From Mesodorylaimus sp. YZB2_4 (taxonomy: Eukaryota; Nematoda; Enoplea; Dorylaimida; Dorylaimidae), in the NCBI GenBank assembly GCA_030248295.1, contig JASANH010000329.1, positions 1 to 64,000 on the forward strand: a stretch of 64,000 nucleotides of DNA. Reading direction: 5' to 3'. Each line of letters starts with the position of its first letter. Within the stretch, counting starts at the first letter, position 1. The position numbers and the translations under genes were made by a program. The notes beneath the pieces are model-generated. The model was not told where the DNA came from. It did not search any database and saw only the letters and a program-made list of their open reading frames with translations. This document shows, piece by piece, positions 12,043 through 61,593 of this stretch.

Positions 12043-12048
12043 TTTATT
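12043..12048 (-). terminator. AATAAA polyadenylation signal of the deaminase gene
   Basis: Minus-strand AATAAA about 75 bp past the stop at 12125-12123. Confidence 0.7.
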
Positions 12049-12122: not shown

Positions 12123-14743
12123 TTATATTGTGCCTTTTTGACCTAAGTATTCCAACAAAGATTCGATTTCCAAATTGATATTAGCCGTTGCTCGACGTAT
12201 TCTTTGGGCGATTTCGTTTGTTTCGGCGTCGTCGAAACTCCGTCCGCAAAAACTGGCCACCATTTGTTGCGCGTGGGCGTCTTCGGTGCTTTGCAGAGAT
12301 TGATTGCTGGCATCCTTCTTCCTCGTCGCCCCGCCCCCTCGATGGTGGCCGTGAGCGTGATCGTTATGTCTATGATCATTTGATGATCTCGCACTGCCAC
12401 CCCCGCCGCCCAAATGTAATTTATCTCTCAATTCCAGCATGTCGATGAAACTACGGCGTTTACTCGGCGTCGATCGGATTTTATGCGGTGTTGCAGTTAA
12501 ATCTAAACATTTTAATGCGTCATTTAATTCGTGTAATTTGACTTTGATATCAGTATAATTTAGAATAGTATTTTTAACGATTTCGTGAATTTCGGCCACC
12601 CAAAATTTCATAGGTAACGATAATGCTCGTCGACATTCATTGATGAAAGATTGACTTTGTGCAACAGCTTTGTCCAAGTTATGGCTATTCCATAATTGCA
12701 GGTAATCGCTTTTATGTTGGCCATCTGTGGGCGTATGGCCAGCAGAGGCGGACGTTCTAGCCGCCGAGGACGATGGTGGTGGTGACCAGTCCATTATATA
12801 ACTCCAGTCTTTCATTAATAATGGCTCCACTTTGATGCCCGATTGTAACATACATAATAAACCTTGTTTAGTGTACAGATCGCCACGATGCAAGTGAGGA
12901 TATAAAAATTTGACCGACATTTTTATGTCGACTTTGCATAATTCTTTTCGAACTTTATATAATAAAATTGACAATAATTTTGCGCAGGCCTTATTCGATT
13001 TACATTCGTCGACCACTTCGCACTTTGGATCGCAATCTTGATGAAAACATGGACTTTTGGAAACGTAAACAATTATTTCGTAAAGGTCCGTTTTATATTT
13101 TGATGTCAAATCATAAATAGCTTGTACCATTTGCTCTTCGACGTGAGGTTGCTGTTTCGAATCGTGGAAAAAATCCATTCGATAAATATAATCGTCGCCT
13201 AATAATGTTAAAATTACTCCGGAACTTTCGTTCTTATGTTCCAAGAAACACTGTTGCAACGATTTGGATATGGCGAATTTGGATGGTCCATTCGAACAAT
13301 CGCCCGAACATTTACATTTGCCCGAAACACAGAATTCGTACATGGCTCGACAAGGGCATTCCCGTTTGACGCATTGTTTACGCGAATTTGAGCGCGTCGA
13401 ACACGAACAACCTTGATTAGCCGATTTCACCAATTTCGTTGCGGTCGCTGGTGTTAATGGTTTTTTCGAACTCGGCGTCGGTGCGACGATTTCTTTATTT
13501 TTACAATTTTGTTTGCACGCACAAATTTTCGAACACGCTTCGCGTACGCGAACGCATTCACAACGTTCGGGTTTTGTGCAAACATTTTTCAATGAAGGCG
13601 ATGGAAGGGAAGATGAATTTTTCACCGAACCACTACCACCAGCAACGCCGCTTGTCGGGGGTGGAATATCGGGTGCTTCGCAATTGCATTTACAAATTGC
13701 TTGGTTCAAACAATCGCCTCGAAATCGTGCGCTTTCGCATAAATCGTCGCAAATACGCTTCGCCGCAAAACACGGACAATTCGTGTCGGCACCGCAACGA
13801 TTTTGGGTTGGAATACAATCGCAACAACGTTCACGGATTGGACGACTCATTCTTGACTTTGGCTTTGATCTAAAAGTGGATTCAAAGGTGCCAGCAGCCA
13901 CCGAATAGAAGGAAATACACACCACAAAAGTAAATTGTGCGTAGTGTAAACCTGAGGGATTTTACACTACATATAGCACACAGGCGGTTTGTGGGAAATG
14001 CGCCTGCACGCCAGCCCCACTGGCCCAAGTGTAAAGTGTAGGGTACGCACTTCGAAATGCGAACGCAGGATATTTTGACAATTAGGCGCGAGACGAATCC
14101 CCTCGAAAGCGCGCTGCAGTTTAATGCCAAGATACTCTCTCTGAGTGCAGCATGATTAGAATTCTTAGAAACCTGGGTTGAAAAAAAGCAAATTTTGAGC
14201 TTCGCGCGCAATCCCCTGAGGCAATAAATGTTTATCCCAGCTTTTCTTACAAAAACTCTGGGATTAATGCACTACCAATCCCACAAATGTCCTCTAGCCG
14301 TGTCTCGTCTGACTGACAATCGAACAGAAATTAAATAGCTTCAGAATGCATGCATATTTTCAGTTCTATTGAATGACAGTGGGAAAAAAAGAAAATTTGA
14401 AATTCACGCTCTTTTTTGAGAGGAGTTTTTACGGGAAACAAATCCAACAGCATCGGCAAACGTTCATTACATTTCTCTTCAGGTGTGGCATACAGAAAAT
14501 AGCAGAAATTTAGAATTTGCGCAGTAGGGTTTCACAGCACAGCATGCGCTGTCCAATTATTTTCCTGAAGTTTAAACGCAATGCCATTTGTCTGCGCGAC
14601 TAATTAGAGCCAGAAGCAGAGTAAAAGAGCGATCGCACCAAGGGCAACGTTGAGAAGCTTGGAGATACAAAACCGATTGTAGGTTCCAAGGTCTCCCCAC
14701 CAGACTGTTCTACTTTCCAGATAAGGGCAACTTACCTGCGCAT
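12123..14743 (-). CDS. CXC-cluster protein fused to an AID/APOBEC-like deaminase
   Basis: Two coding exons: 14743-14736 (ATGCGCAG, with an in-frame stop just upstream) and 13869-12123; 584 aa. The GTAAGT donor and TTTTAG acceptor join in frame with the large exon. Residues 18-69, 100-128 and 157-196 are three Cys-rich clusters of the CXC type (CPC, CKCNC, CECV, CSC, ECPC, CKC), a fold that binds zinc and often DNA in tesmin/TSO1, EZH2 and MSL2 proteins. Residues about 200-366 match the AID/APOBEC deaminase layout: H245-V-E247, 28 residues, P276-C277, four residues, C282, i.e. the H[AV]E-x(23-28)-PCx(2-4)C zinc site with E247 as proton shuttle, then strand 4 (KMSVKFLYPHL), helix 4 (QGLLCMLQSG) and strand 5 (IKVEPLLMKDWSYIMDW). 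An insertion of about 12 residues with extra Cys follows C282. The C terminus is helical, then Gly/His-rich. Cytidine deamination of DNA or RNA guided by the CXC modules is inferred; target unknown. Confidence 0.85.
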
Positions 14744-30641: not shown

Positions 30642-31091
30642 CTATGACCGAGTGCAAAGTCTTGAAGGCTTGCAAGATTGTTTTGCTGCCATTATCCAGA
30701 CATGCTTAGCCATCGGCCTCGAGGGCCCCATCTTCTCTTTCGAGGGCAACATCTTTGTTTCATATCCGATTATCAGGATCAATTTGGGAGAAATTTGTAA
30801 GGAATTTTCCATTTGATAGCGAGGGCGCCTTTTTCTCGCACATGGGCTAATGTATTTTAGAGAGATAAAATCAGCATCTTGTGATATTTGCTTTAAAAAC
30901 GATAAGACGAGGTCATTGAAGCCCACAATAGTGTGTGTCCAGTCCGTGCCTTTGAGGGATTGTTGATACCTAGCTACACCTATTCGCAGTCCGCACTGGA
31001 TATCACTAACCGATGCTTCTATCCGTTCAGGTAACCTCAGTATCATAGCTAGAAAACTGATGGAAAAGGTTTGCACGTCTACTTTATTCCC
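30642..31091 (-). pseudogene. Isolated vWA-domain fragment
   Basis: After a TTTTAG acceptor a single frame reads VDVQTFSISFLAMILRL, SDIQCGLRIGVARYQQ, TIVGFNDLVLSFLKQIS and SPKLILIIGYE, i.e. helix 1, strand B, strand C with helix 2, and strand D of a vWA fold. The strand A exon that should precede it is absent: the oppositely oriented GPCR gene starts 15 bp away at 31106. No signal peptide, no clear domain end. A truncated duplicate of the 1.3-6.6 kb gene family, or an exon of a gene with the receptor nested in its intron. Confidence 0.5.
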
Positions 31092-31105
31092 TAAAACCAA
31101 AGATC

Positions 31106-32248
31106 ATGCAAGAAAATGAGTCGTACGAAAATTCATCAAACATCACAACAGATCCAGGTCGTACTTTGAAAAGTACTGCTGTTGGATTAGTGTTACTGGT
31201 TACGTCCTCAATCTTTCTGGCCGCATACATCCATGTCCTATTTATAATTATGCACAACCGTTTATGGCGAAATCAAAGTTTCTTTTTATGGTGTCTCAGT
31301 TTGAGTATCAGCGACATGGCTAACCTAATTATTTATATTTTGTGTGGAATAAGCGTCTTAATTTCTGAATTAATATTTCCATTAAACATAAGCATAATTA
31401 TTGGTCATTTATACAACTTTTTCTTTTTGCTCAGCTTTGTTCATTTACCTTTGATGGCATTGCTTCGTACCGTGGCCATTATCTGGCCCATACATTCGCG
31501 CGAGTGGTTATGTCCGAAATGGAGCGTGTTGGAAATTGGATTCGTGTGGTTGGCCAATGTATGCCTGACCATGGGTATCCAATGGGACATGGGCAACTGG
31601 GTCTATTACGAGCCGCGCGAGTTTGGTTGGTATTTCGTATTCTTCGATTTATATACCAAAGGCATGGATGTATTCTGGACTCTATTACCAACGTCGTGCA
31701 TCGTCAGCGCTCTGCTACTTTACTTAATTTGTGCATATAAATTACACAAACACGCCAAACAGTTAAATTTACTACAAAATCTAAATTCTCAAAGTAATTT
31801 TGACCAAACGGCAGCCAAAGCTGAGAAAAATTTGGTAAAAATTGGTTTCTCGTTTGTACCCGTGTTTACTATGGATGTGGCATTTTGGCGTATTCAAAGC
31901 GCCATTGCGGAGCCCGCGTGGTGGACATCATTTATGTTGTCCATCGTCGAGATCGTCATGTACGGATCGAACGCCCTGGTCTTATTGGTTGTCAGCCGGG
32001 AAATCAGAGAGCGTAGCGCGCTTTGCAAGTTCATCAAAGCGTGCGGGAAATTGGGGCGGTGTAAAAAGCACAAAGTTGGGTTAGCTGCTAACAACAAACA
32101 GGTTGTGGGAATTGGCGGTGCTTCTAAGGGTGTCAATGCTAATCGTGTGCCTGTTGCCACTAATAAGCTTATACTTACGGCTAAGAATGCTCATGTTGGA
32201 AAAGCTGCGTCGCTTAAAATACCACCATTGACTGCTGTGGACATGTAA
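31106..32248 (+). CDS. Intronless 7TM receptor, Srx-like (paralogue A)
   Basis: Single exon, 380 aa. Short extracellular N terminus with NSSN glycosylation sites, then seven hydrophobic segments. Conserved pairs with the 35.5-kb copy include SFFLWCLSLSISDMANLIIY (TM2), IIGHLYNFFFL (TM3 start), MGNWVYYEP (ECL2), AEKNLVKIGF (TM6 start) and IVEIVMYGSNALVLL (TM7). The TM3 end is LMALLRTVAIIWP in place of a DRY box, as in nematode-type chemoreceptor families, so an Srx-like chemosensory or orphan receptor is inferred; ligand unknown. The C-terminal tail is basic. The start codon is 15 bp from an antisense vWA exon. Confidence 0.85.
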   Translation: MQENESYENSSNITTDPGRTLKSTAVGLVLLVTSSIFLAAYIHVLFIIMHNRLWRNQSFFLWCLSLSISDMANLIIYILCGISVLISELIFPLNISIIIGHLYNFFFLLSFVHLPLMALLRTVAIIWPIHSREWLCPKWSVLEIGFVWLANVCLTMGIQWDMGNWVYYEPREFGWYFVFFDLYTKGMDVFWTLLPTSCIVSALLLYLICAYKLHKHAKQLNLLQNLNSQSNFDQTAAKAEKNLVKIGFSFVPVFTMDVAFWRIQSAIAEPAWWTSFMLSIVEIVMYGSNALVLLVVSREIRERSALCKFIKACGKLGRCKKHKVGLAANNKQVVGIGGASKGVNANRVPVATNKLILTAKNAHVGKAASLKIPPLTAVDM

Positions 32249-34545: not shown

Positions 34546-35545
34546 TCTTTAGAGAACAGTATGGAAGCCGACTAGTACATTTGTACAAGAACATATGCGC
34601 TGGACAGGTTCGAAGCCTTCACTTGAAGATCCCTTACACCTCTCAAACCCCTTTAATGTCACGCGAACGAGATTCTAATCCAAAACTTTGAATTAATATT
34701 TTGAATCATTCTCACCCCCTCATAAACGTGCTCATTGGATCCTTCCGCATGTTTTACATAAAACATAAAGTAAACATAATTTTAGTAAAGTGCCGTTTCT
34801 ATTTTCACGCCCTCAGTTTTCAGCCGTGTGCATTCTCTTTAGTATATATCGCGTATTATGCACTAATAATGGACTGTGTCCAGGATCACTTACCATGATG
34901 AGGCTTCAGAAACACTGCCCACACTATGTAGGGACTCGCATGCTGAGGATGCAACCTACAATGCGCACATATCGAGACCAGGGACCAGAGTGGACTGCAG
35001 CCATCATACACTCCTCCTAGTGCCAACTGCTGTGTTCTGGCTCGTACGCATCTTTTTCTTTTCTCACACTCAAAAAACATCATACGTGCCTGTTTTCAAA
35101 CCGCTGTTAATTGTGCTGAGGCAAAGCAAATTAATTAAAATCTTTTCAAGAAGTGAAGTTTTTATCTCCGCAATATTCTTTCCCCATTCGGCCATCCAGA
35201 AACAAAATATTGCGCACGAAATCGTCAGTACTCGACTTTTAATCAGAGAAATATGGACGGGAGCGAATTAATTTTACGCAAACATTTCTATCTCTAGATT
35301 CGATGTTTTCATCTTGCTTGGCCGACTAAAGCCTAAGAGATGCAGAAATAGGGGCCTTTTTACTAAGATTCGTACGTCAGAGAGTGCGCGTAATTAGAAA
35401 ATGTTATTTATATCCTCTTTATACCGTTGGCCTGTTGATCAATGCCTCGCCAAGCATTGTCAAACCCATCTCCTCTGTTGATGGGGCAAATGTGGTCGAA
35501 AAGAGGATGGCCTGTCTTATCATCCTTACTTAATAAAGTATTTTC
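34546..35545. other. Spacer upstream of receptor B
   Basis: No supported gene; presumably contains the promoter of the receptor starting at 35546. Confidence 0.4.
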
Positions 35546-36754
35546 ATGGAGAATATTTCAAACATGACTTCCCAAAATCAAACAGAAGGAATCACTGTTC
35601 CAACTCGCCACTCCTTGGGTGGATTATTATTATTCCTAACTGGCATATTTCTGTTAATTTATTTACATGTATTTTATATTTTAATTGGTAAAAAGTTATG
35701 GAATATCCACAGTTTCTTTTTATGGTTCGTCAGTTTAAGTTTATGCGATATTGCGAATTTATTGATCTATTTTTGGAGTAGTTTAACCGTTGTCCGTGGT
35801 TATCAATTTTCATCACTCGATGCCCATATCATAATTGGTCACATTTATAATTTCTGTTTTCTTAACGGTTTCTTACATTTTCCATTTATGGCCATAATTC
35901 GTGCTGCTGGCATCGCAGCTCCGCTGAAATCTCGTCAATTTCTGACCACTCGTTGGACATTGGCGCAAATCGGATCAGCGTGGATTATGAGTTTGATATT
36001 GACTGCAAATGCGCAGAGATATCGTGGAAATTGGGTTTATTACGACCCGATAATAATTGGCTGGAATTTAGCGCACGAAGATTTATACGATAGCTCCTTG
36101 GACGCATTTTGGATTACTATGCCTTCCGTGTCCGTGGGTCTATCCTTGTTTATGTACGCTATATGCGTGTATAAGTTAAGGAAACATACCACTCAAATAA
36201 TGGATTCAAATATGTCACATTTCCAAGGCAGCACAACATTGGACCACCAGACTGCTACCACAAGTCACAATCAACCCCAACAGCATCACAGTGCCGAGGC
36301 GGAGAAAAATTTAATCAAAATCAATATGACGCTAGTTTTGGTTTTTACGTTGGACATGATATTTTGGCGTGTTCAAAGTTGGACCAACAAAAGTTGGTGG
36401 ACACCGTTCGCATTGACCATGGTCGAAGTGGTCATGTACGGGGCCAATGCAATCGTACTTTTAAGTGTGAGTAGAGAAATTCGGAAACGCAGTACGCTAT
36501 ATGCCATAATTCTAAAATGCAAATGTCACAAAACGACCACCATGCAATTGGTTGCGAACACAGGTCGTAATCGACAGCCCGTTGGTGGCGCGGATGGAGA
36601 CGGTGCTGGTCCGAGTGGGGCCAGGGCGCAAGAGAGACAAGGACGATTTTTCCCACCTGCAGTCAACTTACTCGTGGAAATGTGGTCACAGATTACCAAA
36701 AAGGAGAAGAAGAGTAATAGCATTCCGAAAAGTAATAAAGTGTCTCCACTTTAG
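35546..36754 (+). CDS. Intronless 7TM receptor, Srx-like (paralogue B)
   Basis: Single exon, 402 aa, with NIS, NMT and NQT glycosylation sites before TM1. Aligns along its length with paralogue A (SFFLWFVSLSLCDIANLLIY, IIGHIYNF, GNWVYYDP, AEKNLIKINM, MVEVVMYGANAIVLL). The TM3 end FMAIIRAAGIAAP lacks DRY. The third intracellular loop has a His/Gln/Thr-rich insert absent from A, and the C-terminal tail is longer and Lys-rich. Tandem duplication 3.3 kb from A, same strand. Likely chemosensory or orphan; coupling not predictable from the sequence. Confidence 0.85.
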   Translation: MENISNMTSQNQTEGITVPTRHSLGGLLLFLTGIFLLIYLHVFYILIGKKLWNIHSFFLWFVSLSLCDIANLLIYFWSSLTVVRGYQFSSLDAHIIIGHIYNFCFLNGFLHFPFMAIIRAAGIAAPLKSRQFLTTRWTLAQIGSAWIMSLILTANAQRYRGNWVYYDPIIIGWNLAHEDLYDSSLDAFWITMPSVSVGLSLFMYAICVYKLRKHTTQIMDSNMSHFQGSTTLDHQTATTSHNQPQQHHSAEAEKNLIKINMTLVLVFTLDMIFWRVQSWTNKSWWTPFALTMVEVVMYGANAIVLLSVSREIRKRSTLYAIILKCKCHKTTTMQLVANTGRNRQPVGGADGDGAGPSGARAQERQGRFFPPAVNLLVEMWSQITKKEKKSNSIPKSNKVSPL

Positions 36755-48101: not shown

Positions 48102-48239
48102 AGCTAAAAGCGGCGGCCTCATAGCAGCCAACTACTCGTTGGTATAGCCAGGGCGGAGATAGCAGTGCCTACCAGTCGGCTAGTGCAGCGATTGCCTTCG
48201 TTTCCCCCACTCTCGATCAGCCGAGTAAACGACTCCAAA

Positions 48240-50938
48240 ATGTCCAAATTAGGACTCGTCTTTTTCATACTCTCGCTATTGGCCATTACCATTTATGGTC
48301 AAAAATACGATTCCTATTCGAAAACTTGTCCAGAAACGTGCGATCCAGACGAGTGCGAGGCCCCGATGAAAGTATGTCCAGCCGGTCAAGTCAAGGATCG
48401 ATGCGATTGCTGTTTCATTTGTGGGCGTACCGAAGGTGAGCCATGCGATGTGGAGGTGGTCAACGATAAGAATGGACGATTCGATACGCGCAATGGTTAT
48501 TCGCCCATGCATGGCCGATGCGGCGAGAATTTGATGTGTCAAATCGACGAGGACACTGAGGTGAGCCGTCCTTTGCGCTGCGCATTGGCCTAGGAGAAAA
48601 TGCGACCGATCCAAGTATGTGGGACAGAAACTCTGACTGGAGCATATGCCAAGTCTTGGCCACATACCTGAGGCTGACAGCCATGGGTTACCCACTTCCG
48701 CCTGAACATACAGAACGCCTACTGTAGGCTGACTTTGTGATCTGTCTTATTCGCGTTTGACCGACCACCCAAAAATTGACAAGTACAGTACCTCTAATAC
48801 CCATTTTAGGGCGTTTTTCCGAGTCGCTGTATATCAAATTTCACTAGGTACTTTTCGCTGTACAGTAATTCACACCTAAAAAGTTTTAGTCGCCCAACAA
48901 CGTGATTGAAGCAGCCGTTTGCGTGTGCAATGACCGCAAGCCAGTGTGTGGCGAGGATAAGAAAACGTACAACAGCAAGTGCCATTTCGCCGAAACCATG
49001 GCTGGACGACACGAAAAGTTCAACATTGCTAAATCTGAGCCGTGCGATGATGGTAAGATGCCAACTAGAAGATATGGGGGGGCGGTTCAGGTAAAATGAC
49101 CGATCCGAATAAATATTTTACCAAACCACATGCAAAACCTGCGCGTGGTGAGTAATCATGGCGAAGCTTTTTTTGCCTTCGTGGCGTATCTTTCGCCTTT
49201 TCAAAGCTTGATGCAGGGTAGATCTGTCATTTAAACTTTGTCTTCCGCCTGAACCTCCGAATTTCATACCCAGACCTCTTTAGTCAAAAAATTACGCCAA
49301 AACCCGATCACATCCAAAACCCAATTACAATAGATAAGCTTATGCTACGCATATACGCTATGCTTTTGCTTATGCATGCTACCACGCACCAAATGACCCA
49401 CCCCACTATGGCTTGAGTTAAAACGTTTTCTCTGGCATGAAGAAAAGACAGCAGTAATTACAAACATTAAAAAATCTGGCCCTTATTATCGGGTTACCCC
49501 ACTCTGGTCCATCTATTTTGGCCCCAGATGCCGACTCTGCAGTCTGTAGTTATCTCCCACTCTCTTCATGCTGAGCATTTTTTGGTTAGAGTAAGCAGGT
49601 GATGAGACTGAGCCGGATCCTGGTCATGATTCTTACTAAAAAGCCCACTGTATATAGTCGTAGTAGGTGTAAAGTGCGGTAGGCACCTTTATCGTCCGCC
49701 TACCTTCAGAGTGGCTTTTGTGTCCTCCAACAGGAAAAATTTCAGATCCTGCGGACATTCGAATAGATGCTAAGAACTTGAGCGGATCTGGAGTAGTGAG
49801 GACAAATCAGTGCAGGCTCCCCATTTAATTTCTACTTCTTTGATGCACTTTGCAGCTTGTCCTCTGTCGTCCCCATTCGACAATGCTATATTGCATGATT
49901 TTAAATTTCAGCTCCAGCCATCGTTGGCGCGCCGAAAGATGCTGAAGTGGTTTATGGCGAAAATGTGGTGTTGACTTGCGAAGTGGCCGGATATCCACCA
50001 CCTCGCATTGACTGGAAATTGACCCGTCCAAATGGCCAAGTGGTTTTTATGCCAAGTAAGAGTTGTACTTTAGGATTGCTGTAGATGAAGTATCATTACT
50101 ACCCAATACCGTGCTTTCCGTCTTTCTAACTGGGGTCTTTCCCTGATTTTTGTGCATGACTACTTCGATTCTTATTTCTGGTTAGCCTTCTTTTTGCAAA
50201 TTTTGCACGAGTCTAGACTTTTATCCAACGCACAGTACTTCCGTCTGCCCTGGCCTTGCTGATTAGGATTGAAGAGGGACCCAAAAATGCAGAAATCAGG
50301 CTGGTGAAAGCATGCGAAAGCCCTGCACTCACAATTCGAAAACACCAGGTAATACCGGACTCCAGTGTTCTCCGTTTCGATACTTTCTTACCTCAACTGT
50401 ATCCCCTTTCATGTTCCTACTCTCTATGGCCTTGAAAACGTGCAGGTACTGTATATAATCCTCACACTTTTTTGCAGATGGCGATTCTCGCAAATCGGTG
50501 CAAGCACGAGGTGGACCCGATCACTTTCACATGACTGGCTGGCTCTATTTGACCAAGGTCGATCAAGATGACGCCGGTGTGTACACTTGCACTGCCAAGA
50601 ACAAGTTGGGAAAGGCCACGTCCGATGCACGCCTCGTGGTGAAAAGGCGCGAAGGTAAGTGTCCCCAGAACTATGGAATGAGTGGAGCCCACTTTACACT
50701 GCAGGTTTGTGATTGCAGCGCATGATATTGCACTTGCATGGACAGTGTAAAGTATACAATGTCACTGCTGTCTAGAAAATTTCTACTCCTTAATGGCCAT
50801 ATACTTAAGCGTATGCTATTACTCCTACCCTAGGGGTAGGAGGTAGAAATTTTGTCGACTATAAATGCGCCTTCTAGCAAGTCTGTACTGGATCTTCCGA
50901 TGCGTCATAAGTGCTTCATCATTTCAGCCGAATTGTAA
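48240..50938 (+). CDS. Secreted IGFBP-Kazal-Ig protein (IGFBP7/IGFBPL1-like)
   Basis: Exons 48240-48560, 48890-49052, 49912-50055, 50478-50654 and 50928-50938; 816 nt in frame, 271 aa (IGFBP7 is about 280). Signal peptide MSKLGLVFFILSLLAITIYG. Residues about 29-107 form the IGFBP N-terminal module (CPETCDPDECEAP, CPAGQVKDRCDCCFICGR, GEPCD, GRCGENLMC). Residues about 117-160 are a Kazal/follistatin module (VCVCNDRKPVCGEDKKTYNS). Residues about 163-265 are an I-set Ig domain (VVLTCEVAGYPPPRIDWKL, DDAGVYTCTAKNKLG). The last exon encodes only two whole codons plus stop after a strong GTAAGT. Vertebrate relatives bind IGFs, activins or matrix; a secreted growth-factor modulator is the likely role. 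Each module sits on its own exon set. Confidence 0.92.
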
Positions 50939-60429: not shown

Positions 60430-61593
60430 ATGAATTATTCCTTGAACAGGTAAATTTATTTTATACACAAAAACTTCGCTTTTCATCAAACTCTCAATTT
60501 CTCTTTTAGTTCGTCTCCAACAACGTCATCTTCTTGCGAGGAATTCGCAAAAACCATTCAAAAATTAAAAGCTGACGCTGTATTTGTGTATACAATCACA
60601 ATACCATACTTCCTCCTCACTGTTCCAACCCGAATAATTTCACTTTTTGCTTTTTACCTTCAATCAAAAAAGGAATCAGCATATATTTATCAAATTTTTT
60701 TAACTGTTGCCGAGCTTTTTGAATCAATTATTTGGACACTATCAAGAATCTCGAAACATCTTTTGTCAGGCGCCGAGGGCCGAGGTCAGGAATGGTACAC
60801 GCGATGCTATGCATGTATGTATTATGACGCCCACTTGGGGAATCCCTCTCAGATGGGGGCCATGCTGTGGTGTCTGATTTTAGCCATCTGCATGACCTGC
60901 GATCGTTTGTATTCTTTGGCTAAGCCTATTCAATACACTAAACATAAAAAAAAGAAATTTATAAAGATTTATGTTTTCATTTGTTCAATAATTTTAACCT
61001 TTATATTTACATTTTTTATCTTTTTTCATTTGACTGTCTACATTAATCCAGAAACTGGCATTTACTCTGTTTCTGGGTCGGACTGGTTCCAGTACACATC
61101 ACCATTCGTTGTAGTACATACTTTTGCCAAATTATTATGCACAATTGCTTTAATAATATTAAACGCAATTATGTTCGTTCTTTTTCGATTTCGCATGAAG
61201 AATAAATCTAATTTAACTGCAAAATCTTCTTCACCCGAAATTGTCAAAACTGAATTGAAGCAAGTGAAAGCCCTTTTTCATTTAACCATAATCCAATCTT
61301 TACTGAACATTGTGGCAATCAGTGGTGAATTTGCTTATCAGTTAATCAATTTCGTATCCAAATATATTGGTGTGCCAAGTTTAGTATGTGTTGCTAATGG
61401 CCTCAATCCGATTGGCCATATTACACGGCAAATTGGTGAGATGGCCTCATTCTTTGTTTTATTTGCTTTTGCAAAATCATTTCGAGAAACCATCATGAAT
61501 GGTGTCAGAGAATTTTGCGGGAAATGTTGTGCGACAAGGGTAACTGTAATTGCGAATAGTCGTAATGGACCATTTTGTGAAAAAGCCGATTAG
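60430..61593 (+). CDS. Peptide-type rhodopsin-family GPCR
   Basis: Exon 1 60430-60449 (MNYSLN, ending AG before GTAAAT), a 60-bp intron with acceptor CTCTTTTAG, and exon 2 60510-61593; 1104 nt in frame, 367 aa. The N terminus carries NYS and NSS glycosylation sites. Seven hydrophobic segments follow. The TM3 end CMTCDRLYSLAKPIQYT is a DRY-type motif (DRL), unlike the two Srx-like receptors, and two extracellular cysteines flank the TM3 region. TM7 (NPIGHITRQIGEMASFFVLFA) departs from NPxxY. FMRFamide/neuropeptide-receptor-like class is the likely home; the ligand cannot be told. Confidence 0.82.

What the first reader, a model, noticed from the sequence alone, without database searches (positions are those of the whole stretch)
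12123..14743. CXC cysteine clusters fused to an AID/APOBEC-like cytidine deaminase in an invertebrate
Seen directly: three Cys clusters with CPC/CKC signatures, then HVE, 28 residues, PC, 4 residues, C, exactly the AID/APOBEC zinc motif, followed by strand 4, helix 4 and strand 5 patterns ending MKDWSYIMDW, as in AID. Known: AID/APOBEC enzymes edit DNA or RNA and have immune and mutator roles; CXC modules bind DNA in chromatin proteins. Inference: a self-targeting DNA or RNA editor where CXC modules recruit a mutator, perhaps for transposon or virus control. I know of no described protein with this architecture.
Basis: partly seen in the sequence, partly recalled or inferred. Interest (0 to 1): 0.95.

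Follow-up and report, generated by a model that had tools for sequence, protein, structure and literature searches.

The report
CXC zinc-cluster AID-like deaminase, nematode
A roundworm gene joins three cysteine-rich modules that resemble DNA-binding zinc domains to an enzyme domain related to the antibody-mutating enzyme AID, which may make it a DNA-anchored base editor, but its activity has not been tested.

Summary
On the minus strand, 13850..12123 is an uninterrupted 575-codon ORF. Residues 224-400 match Pfam APOBEC_N at 1.9e-22. The N-terminus has three CXC-type cysteine cores (0 of 100,000 shuffles). The host is a nematode (133 cuticle-collagen matches). Two further genes share the architecture, 77% and 35% identical; 26 of 28 N-terminal Cys and the catalytic and insert ligands are invariant.

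Corrections: the zinc motif is not "exactly" AID's. After PC come five conserved His/Cys in 21 residues; which Cys completes the catalytic zinc is unsettled, and a second metal site is likely but inferred. AID's Trp before SPC is absent. CXC homology is moderate: best Pfam match 0.0039, below cut-off, in a paralog; none for the window copy.

Best reading: an intracellular, DNA-tethered cytidine deaminase, possibly against mobile elements; RNA editing stays open. AID/APOBEC-like genes in nematodes are on record (recalled). My paper searches listed none on the CXC fusion, but the two key surveys are not held. New variant of a known kind.

The parts
12123..13850 (-). coding sequence, 575 codons plus stop, single exon from the conserved Met (MSRP)
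   Evidence: start shared with the C64 paralog
13710..13826 (-). CXC module 1, Cys 9-47; core pattern only, the end of the module is C-x8-C instead of C-x-C-x2/3-C
   Evidence: spacing; core pattern; preSET_CXC E 0.08 in the C64 paralog, below cut-off
13503..13694 (-). CXC module 2, Cys 53-116, nine-Cys pattern with a long linker before the third Cys
   Evidence: linker 33-35 residues here depending on which Cys pair is counted, 14 in the C23 paralog
13296..13409 (-). CXC module 3, Cys 148-185, complete nine-Cys pattern, closest to MSL2 CXC of the two references compared
   Evidence: same module of the C64 paralog is Pfam TCR E 0.0039, below the curated cut-off
12651..13181 (-). AID/APOBEC deaminase domain (residues 224-400)
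   Evidence: Pfam APOBEC_N 1.9e-22, 80.5 bits
13137..13145 (-). HVE (residues 236-238), zinc ligand and catalytic Glu by family knowledge; HAE in the C23 paralog
12984..13052 (-). PC (267-268) to C289: second half of the zinc motif with a Cys/His-rich stretch (H270, C273, C277, C283, C289), these residues invariant in the three paralogs
   Evidence: a second metal site is inference
12126..12650 (-). C-terminal extension (residues 401-575), no family match over a cut-off; holds a basic patch PSKRR
   Evidence: helices and nuclear signal are inference by eye
14736..14743 (-). possible upstream first coding exon (ATGCGCAG then GTAAGT), intron 13870-14735
   Evidence: splice signals only, unproven
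12043..12048 (-). polyadenylation-type signal AATAAA

Best explanation
The gene encodes an intracellular polynucleotide cytidine deaminase of the AID/APOBEC superfamily. Its N-terminus is three tandem CXC zinc modules, of the kind that grip double-stranded DNA in LIN54 and MSL2 (recalled). Most likely mechanism: the CXC modules hold the enzyme on chromatin; the deaminase domain converts C to U in single-stranded stretches exposed there by transcription or transposition; the Cys/His-rich stretch next to the active site, probably a second zinc site, shapes which strand and sequence is accepted; the uracil is then read as T or removed by a uracil-DNA glycosylase. The use would be restriction or mutation of mobile elements or viral DNA, or targeted genome editing. 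Shown: the domain's identity by profile, conserved catalytic and metal-type residues, three paralogs of one architecture with the close pair clearly constrained, UDG-family genes in the genome. By eye only: no signal peptide. Inferred: zinc and DNA binding by the CXC modules, activity, substrate, biological role.
For: APOBEC_N 1.9e-22; 3 of 3 paralogs match it and all three genes are over its cut-off when the genome is searched (83.6, 82.4, 43.2 bits). H236, E238, P267, C268 and H270/C273/C277/C283/C289 are invariant in three proteins of which the third is 35% identical to the first. pN 0.151 against pS 0.833 between the window gene and C64. Three CXC cores are absent from shuffles (0, 1, 0 of 100,000). 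In 169,738 bases read in six frames (the window and the held loci, less 11 loci of this gene and its paralogs) the full pattern occurs 3 times: twice in this gene, once in L027, which had come in as a weak CXC match. Module 3 to MSL2 CXC by hhalign: E 1.3e-4, probability 53%, the best of four comparisons. C64 paralog N-terminus: Pfam TCR 0.0039, 3 stretches. UDG family: 2 matches over the cut-off.
Against: The window protein's own CXC region matches no Pfam family at E up to 10, its module 3 no PDB sequence, and each CXC match of the family is below the curated cut-off. A PF03638 search of the genome did not list these genes. The other three hhalign comparisons are weaker: module 2 to MSL2 43%, module 3 to a LIN-54 exon 27%, module 2 to it 3%. 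In the family-profile search of the PDB, MSL2 (E 4.3) came second to an unrelated protein, internalin B (E 1.7). The Trp of SWSPC is absent (SKSPC, PNSPC). hhalign against AID alone gives E 0.005 but probability 7%, over 48 columns. No APOBEC structure is found by sequence. No hypermutated repeat copy in the 5 examined. No structure, expression or activity data.
Confidence: 0.5

Rival explanations
1. RNA editor: the deaminase edits C to U in RNA, as APOBEC1 does, and the CXC modules bind RNA, a partner protein or chromatin near nascent transcripts.
For: The family includes RNA editors (recalled); the pocket without Trp and the Cys/His-rich stretch at the active site mean that AID-like choice of ssDNA cannot be assumed. 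C-to-U editing of svh-1 mRNA by CDD-2, which clusters with nucleoside deaminases, is argued on genetic grounds in C. elegans; its authors say that biochemical evidence is lacking (PMC11305532, passages only).
Against: CXC modules with a known ligand bind DNA (recalled: LIN54, MSL2). No RNA-binding family matched over a cut-off in Pfam or NCBIfam.
Confidence: 0.25
2. Repurposed or weakly active: the deaminase fold is kept for binding or structural reasons, or acts on a non-canonical base, and the protein is mainly a chromatin or metal-binding factor.
For: No SWS Trp; Cys/His-rich stretch in the zinc motif; scores to NAD1 (24.6 bits) and APOBEC2 (19.2) below their cut-offs, while human AID scores above 200 with both.
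Against: HxE and PC are invariant in three paralogs, which is not expected of a dead enzyme.
Confidence: 0.17
3. The N-terminal clusters are zinc modules unrelated to CXC/CRC domains that mediate protein contacts; the likeness in spacing is convergent.
For: The window's own region has no Pfam match; the modules are small and Cys-dominated and each match is below cut-off; module 1 departs from the pattern at its end.
Against: Nine-Cys spacing of modules 2 and 3 with the fixed C-x-C-x6-C, and three cores, absent from shuffles; Pfam TCR match of the C64 paralog in 3 stretches.
Confidence: 0.15

Closest known systems
AID/APOBEC deaminases (Pfam APOBEC_N PF08210; NAD1 PF18778; SNAD4 PF18750)
   Same: Deaminase domain with HxE and PC...C, and layout up to the KDW block and the last W..L region.
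   Different: Three N-terminal CXC-type modules, five conserved His/Cys in the 21 residues after PC, no SWS Trp, a long C-terminal extension. NAD1 and SNAD4 scores are just below their cut-offs.
AID/APOBEC-like proteins of sea urchin (SpAIDL; PMC5956068, passages of one find)
   Same: Same Pfam domain in an invertebrate.
   Different: The passage gives lengths of 193 and 194 residues, so no room for N-terminal modules of this size; the words fusion and cysteine do not occur in the main text.
CXC/CRC proteins LIN54, tesmin, TSO1 (PF03638) and MSL2 CXC
   Same: Nine-Cys modules C-x-C-x(n)-C-x4/5-C-x-C-x6-C-x2-4-C-x-C-x2/3-C.
   Different: Those carry no deaminase (recalled). By eye, the RNPxAFxPK linker of LIN54 (seen) is not between the modules here.

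Membership tests
AID/APOBEC deaminase superfamily | Match to the family profile over its curated cut-off | tested here: met
   80.5 bits against 25; all three paralogs over it
AID/APOBEC deaminase superfamily | HxE-x(n)-PC-x(2-4)-C zinc motif (recalled) | tested here: inconclusive
   HVE and PC present; both alignments put the third ligand at C273 (PC-x4-C); by eye C289 before AKLLSILL is an alternative
AID/APOBEC deaminase superfamily | Pocket Trp in SWSPC (recalled; typical of AID and APOBEC1-3, I do not treat it as defining the superfamily) | tested here: not met
   SKSPC in W and C64, PNSPC in C23
AID/APOBEC deaminase superfamily | Five-strand deaminase fold with parallel strands 4 and 5 | not testable with these tools
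   structure prediction switched off
AID/APOBEC deaminase superfamily | C-to-U activity on ssDNA or RNA | not testable with these tools
   needs an assay
SNAD (secreted) branch | N-terminal signal peptide | tested here: not met
   by eye only, no predictor run: starts MSRPIRERCCDC, or MRRSKPKSRM, or MRRM, without a hydrophobic stretch
CXC/CRC domain | Nine-Cys spacing pattern | tested here: met
   modules 2 and 3 full, module 1 core only
CXC/CRC domain | Profile match over the curated cut-off | tested here: not met
   best is TCR 17.9 bits against 23.5 in the C64 paralog; none for the window copy
CXC/CRC domain | Zinc-dependent double-strand DNA binding | not testable with these tools
   needs an assay

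The most novel reading that the evidence does not exclude
A CXC-anchored genome mutator: a DNA-binding, self-targeting cytidine deaminase lineage kept in nematodes that edits chromatin DNA at sites chosen by its CXC modules, as a mobile-element defence or a programmed diversification system outside vertebrates, with a second zinc site that sets the substrate.
Probability: 0.25. Interest if true: 0.88.

Novelty: new variant of a known kind. Interest (0 to 1): 0.62.

Why it matters
AID and the APOBECs as I know them lack a dedicated DNA-targeting domain, and how AID finds its targets is a long-standing question (recalled). A natural fusion of an AID-like deaminase to DNA-reading modules would be a directly testable case of built-in targeting, a possible mutator defence in nematodes, and a natural model for how base editors can be aimed.

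Tried and rejected
Structure prediction of the whole protein: not accepted, tool switched off, so no fold search. PDB by sequence: no APOBEC with the protein (1 unrelated hit), the family profile (2 weak hits, internalin B and MSL2), the deaminase profile (none) or module 3 alone (none). Relatives outside this genome: none confirmed in viral contigs, bacterial and archaeal genome contigs or phages; these collections are not of animals, so that says nothing about other nematodes. DNA methylation link: two short DNA_methylase matches over the cut-off, each with a stop inside; dropped. Hypermutation test on repeat copies: inconclusive. Species by 18S: not completed. Transposon or virus passenger: of 10 open frames of the window scanned, none matched a transposon or virus family and three matched nothing; I did not search the window for repeats.

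Papers: Krishnan et al. 2018 and Iyer et al. 2011, the two key surveys, are not held; what I say of them (AID/APOBEC-like genes in nematodes, metal-binding inserts in loops) is recalled. Searches whose listings (titles and starts of abstracts) showed me nothing on a CXC-APOBEC fusion. Searches followed a wrong early guess (tardigrade) and found no papers. Passages only were seen of PMC5956068, PMC11004436, PMC11305532 and PMC3482391. The library holds open-licence papers only.

Full report
What is there. The minus strand from 13850 to 12123 encodes 575 residues without interruption. An AATAAA lies 74 bases past the stop. That is possible but unproven; the start MSRP at 13850 is shared by the C64 paralog.

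The host. The window belongs to a 145 Mb assembly in 1067 contigs. It has 133 matches of the nematode cuticle collagen N-terminal domain, and three frames of the window match Srx-type chemoreceptors, so it is a nematode. The species was not identified; the 18S search did not complete.

The deaminase. Residues 224-400 match APOBEC_N at 1.9e-22, 80.5 bits, cut-off 25. Two other places in the genome carry the same protein architecture: C64 and C23, 77% and 35% identical over the alignment. All three pass the APOBEC_N cut-off when the genome is searched. The window gene and C64 differ at 15% of nonsynonymous and 83% of synonymous sites, so the pair is old and the protein constrained. For C23 against the window gene the counts are pN 0.473 and pS 0.741; synonymous sites are near saturation and the contrast is weaker. 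H236, E238, P267 and C268 are invariant in the three. Against this reading: hhalign of the three-protein profile with human AID alone gives E 0.005 and a probability of only 7% over 48 columns, and no APOBEC structure is found in the PDB by sequence. The family match rests on the Pfam profile. Human AID scores about equally with APOBEC_N, NAD1 and APOBEC2 (223, 223, 219 bits), while the window protein scores 80.5, 24.6 and 19.2. I infer that the APOBEC_N model may already hold sequences nearer to this lineage, so that the lineage itself is probably in the databases; I could not look into the model.

The zinc motif is unusual. In AID the zinc cysteines are PC-YD-C, followed by ARHVADFL. Here the text is SPC-FHQDCDPKCEVVDECKSNKA-C-AKLLSILL. 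Both alignments (hhalign and MAFFT) put AID's second Cys at C273, giving PC-x4-C with an insert after it. By eye I see another fit, AID's C-ARHVADFL on C289-AKLLSILL, which would put the insert between the two zinc cysteines. Either way H270, C273, C277, C283 and C289 are invariant, and after the catalytic zinc has taken one, four are left, enough for a second metal site next to the active site. That site is inference. The Trp that AID has before SPC is Lys or Asn here.

The CXC modules. Residues 9-185 hold 28 Cys, 26 of them in invariant columns. Written as gaps between Cys, module 3 is 1-9-4-1-6-4-1-3 and module 2 after its linker is 5-1-6-3-1-3; MSL2 is 1-11-4-1-6-2-1-2 (letters). A pattern covering LIN54 and MSL2 spacing finds two full modules and three cores in each paralog. 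Three cores arose in 0, 1 and 0 of 100,000 shuffles for W, C64 and C23; two full modules in 0 of 100,000 for each. The pattern was written after seeing the sequence. Profile evidence is moderate: C64 N-terminus Pfam TCR 0.0039 in three stretches and preSET_CXC 0.08, both below cut-off (TCR 0.021 with a whole protein, 1 of 3 members); module 3 to MSL2 1.3e-4 with probability 53%, the best of four hhalign comparisons, the others 43%, 27% and 3%; MSL2 in the PDB at E 4.3, behind an unrelated protein. The window copy alone gives nothing, and PF03638 run over the genome did not list these genes (9 matches, four of them at one place on C45 that reads like LIN-54). With the CXC region as query the genome gives 3 matches, the three deaminase genes.

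How it may work. Known CXC domains of LIN54 and MSL2 bind double-stranded DNA (recalled). The simplest reading is a chromatin-tethered deaminase acting on transiently single-stranded DNA. UDG-family genes exist in the genome (2 matches). A mutation footprint was sought only once, in 5 of 6 held copies of one repeat: C>T and G>A were 80 of 194 singleton differences (33 and 47), per-site rate about twice that of A>G and T>C, with higher rates after T (33 of 191) and before G (29 of 162). That is ordinary decay or a weak footprint; it does not decide.

Known or new. AID/APOBEC-like genes in nematodes and metal-binding inserts were described by Krishnan et al. 2018 (recalled; not held). The sea urchin proteins named in one passage have 193 and 194 residues (PMC5956068). 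The listings showed me nothing on a CXC fusion, in a library that lacks the key surveys. I therefore rate it a new variant of a known kind; it may have been noted in a survey that I could not see.

Noticed in passing
L014-L019 (contigs C802, C243, C284, C274, C653, C477): A second class of AID-like exon (HTEVH...SPCxQC) lies at six places. Five of them are copies of one repeat: against L017, pieces over 150 bases are 76-99% identical; L019 (C477) shows no such piece. The exon is found whole by pattern in 5 of 6 (not in L016), pooled pS 0.190, pN 0.054. In L019 the Pro of SPC is changed (SRCRDC). An upstream frame in L016 starts with a signal-peptide-like stretch and is Cys-rich (by eye), so a secreted, SNAD-like deaminase is possible.
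   Followed up: partly
L016:733-1401 and L019:307-1446: Genes like those of Maverick/Polinton-type transposons (label recalled) near those exons: an A32-type ATPase (Pox_A32 E 4.8e-5, 23.4 bits, cut-off 22.8) and a chromodomain integrase. Part of the ATPase frame lies in the stretch that L016 shares with L017, so the deaminase may ride on, or sit next to, such an element.
   Followed up: partly
G000:C48:575746-575841 (L027): Another open frame with one full CXC pattern, followed by SMSSEPGGH repeats; Pfam TCR 0.0045, below cut-off.
   Followed up: no
window 31061-32248, 35537-36754, 60454-61593: Three long open frames that match Srx chemoreceptors over the cut-off.
   Followed up: no
G000:C73:251445-254668 and ten other contigs: 15 COX1 matches on 11 contigs, 14 over the cut-off, all 15 with TGA inside and some with other stops; the longest reads through with code 5 and has an ND4-like frame beside it by eye: mitochondrial insertions or misassembled mitochondrial DNA.
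   Followed up: no
window 48108-48593: Small open frame with an IGFBP domain (E 1.9e-8); unusual in a nematode as far as I recall.
   Followed up: no
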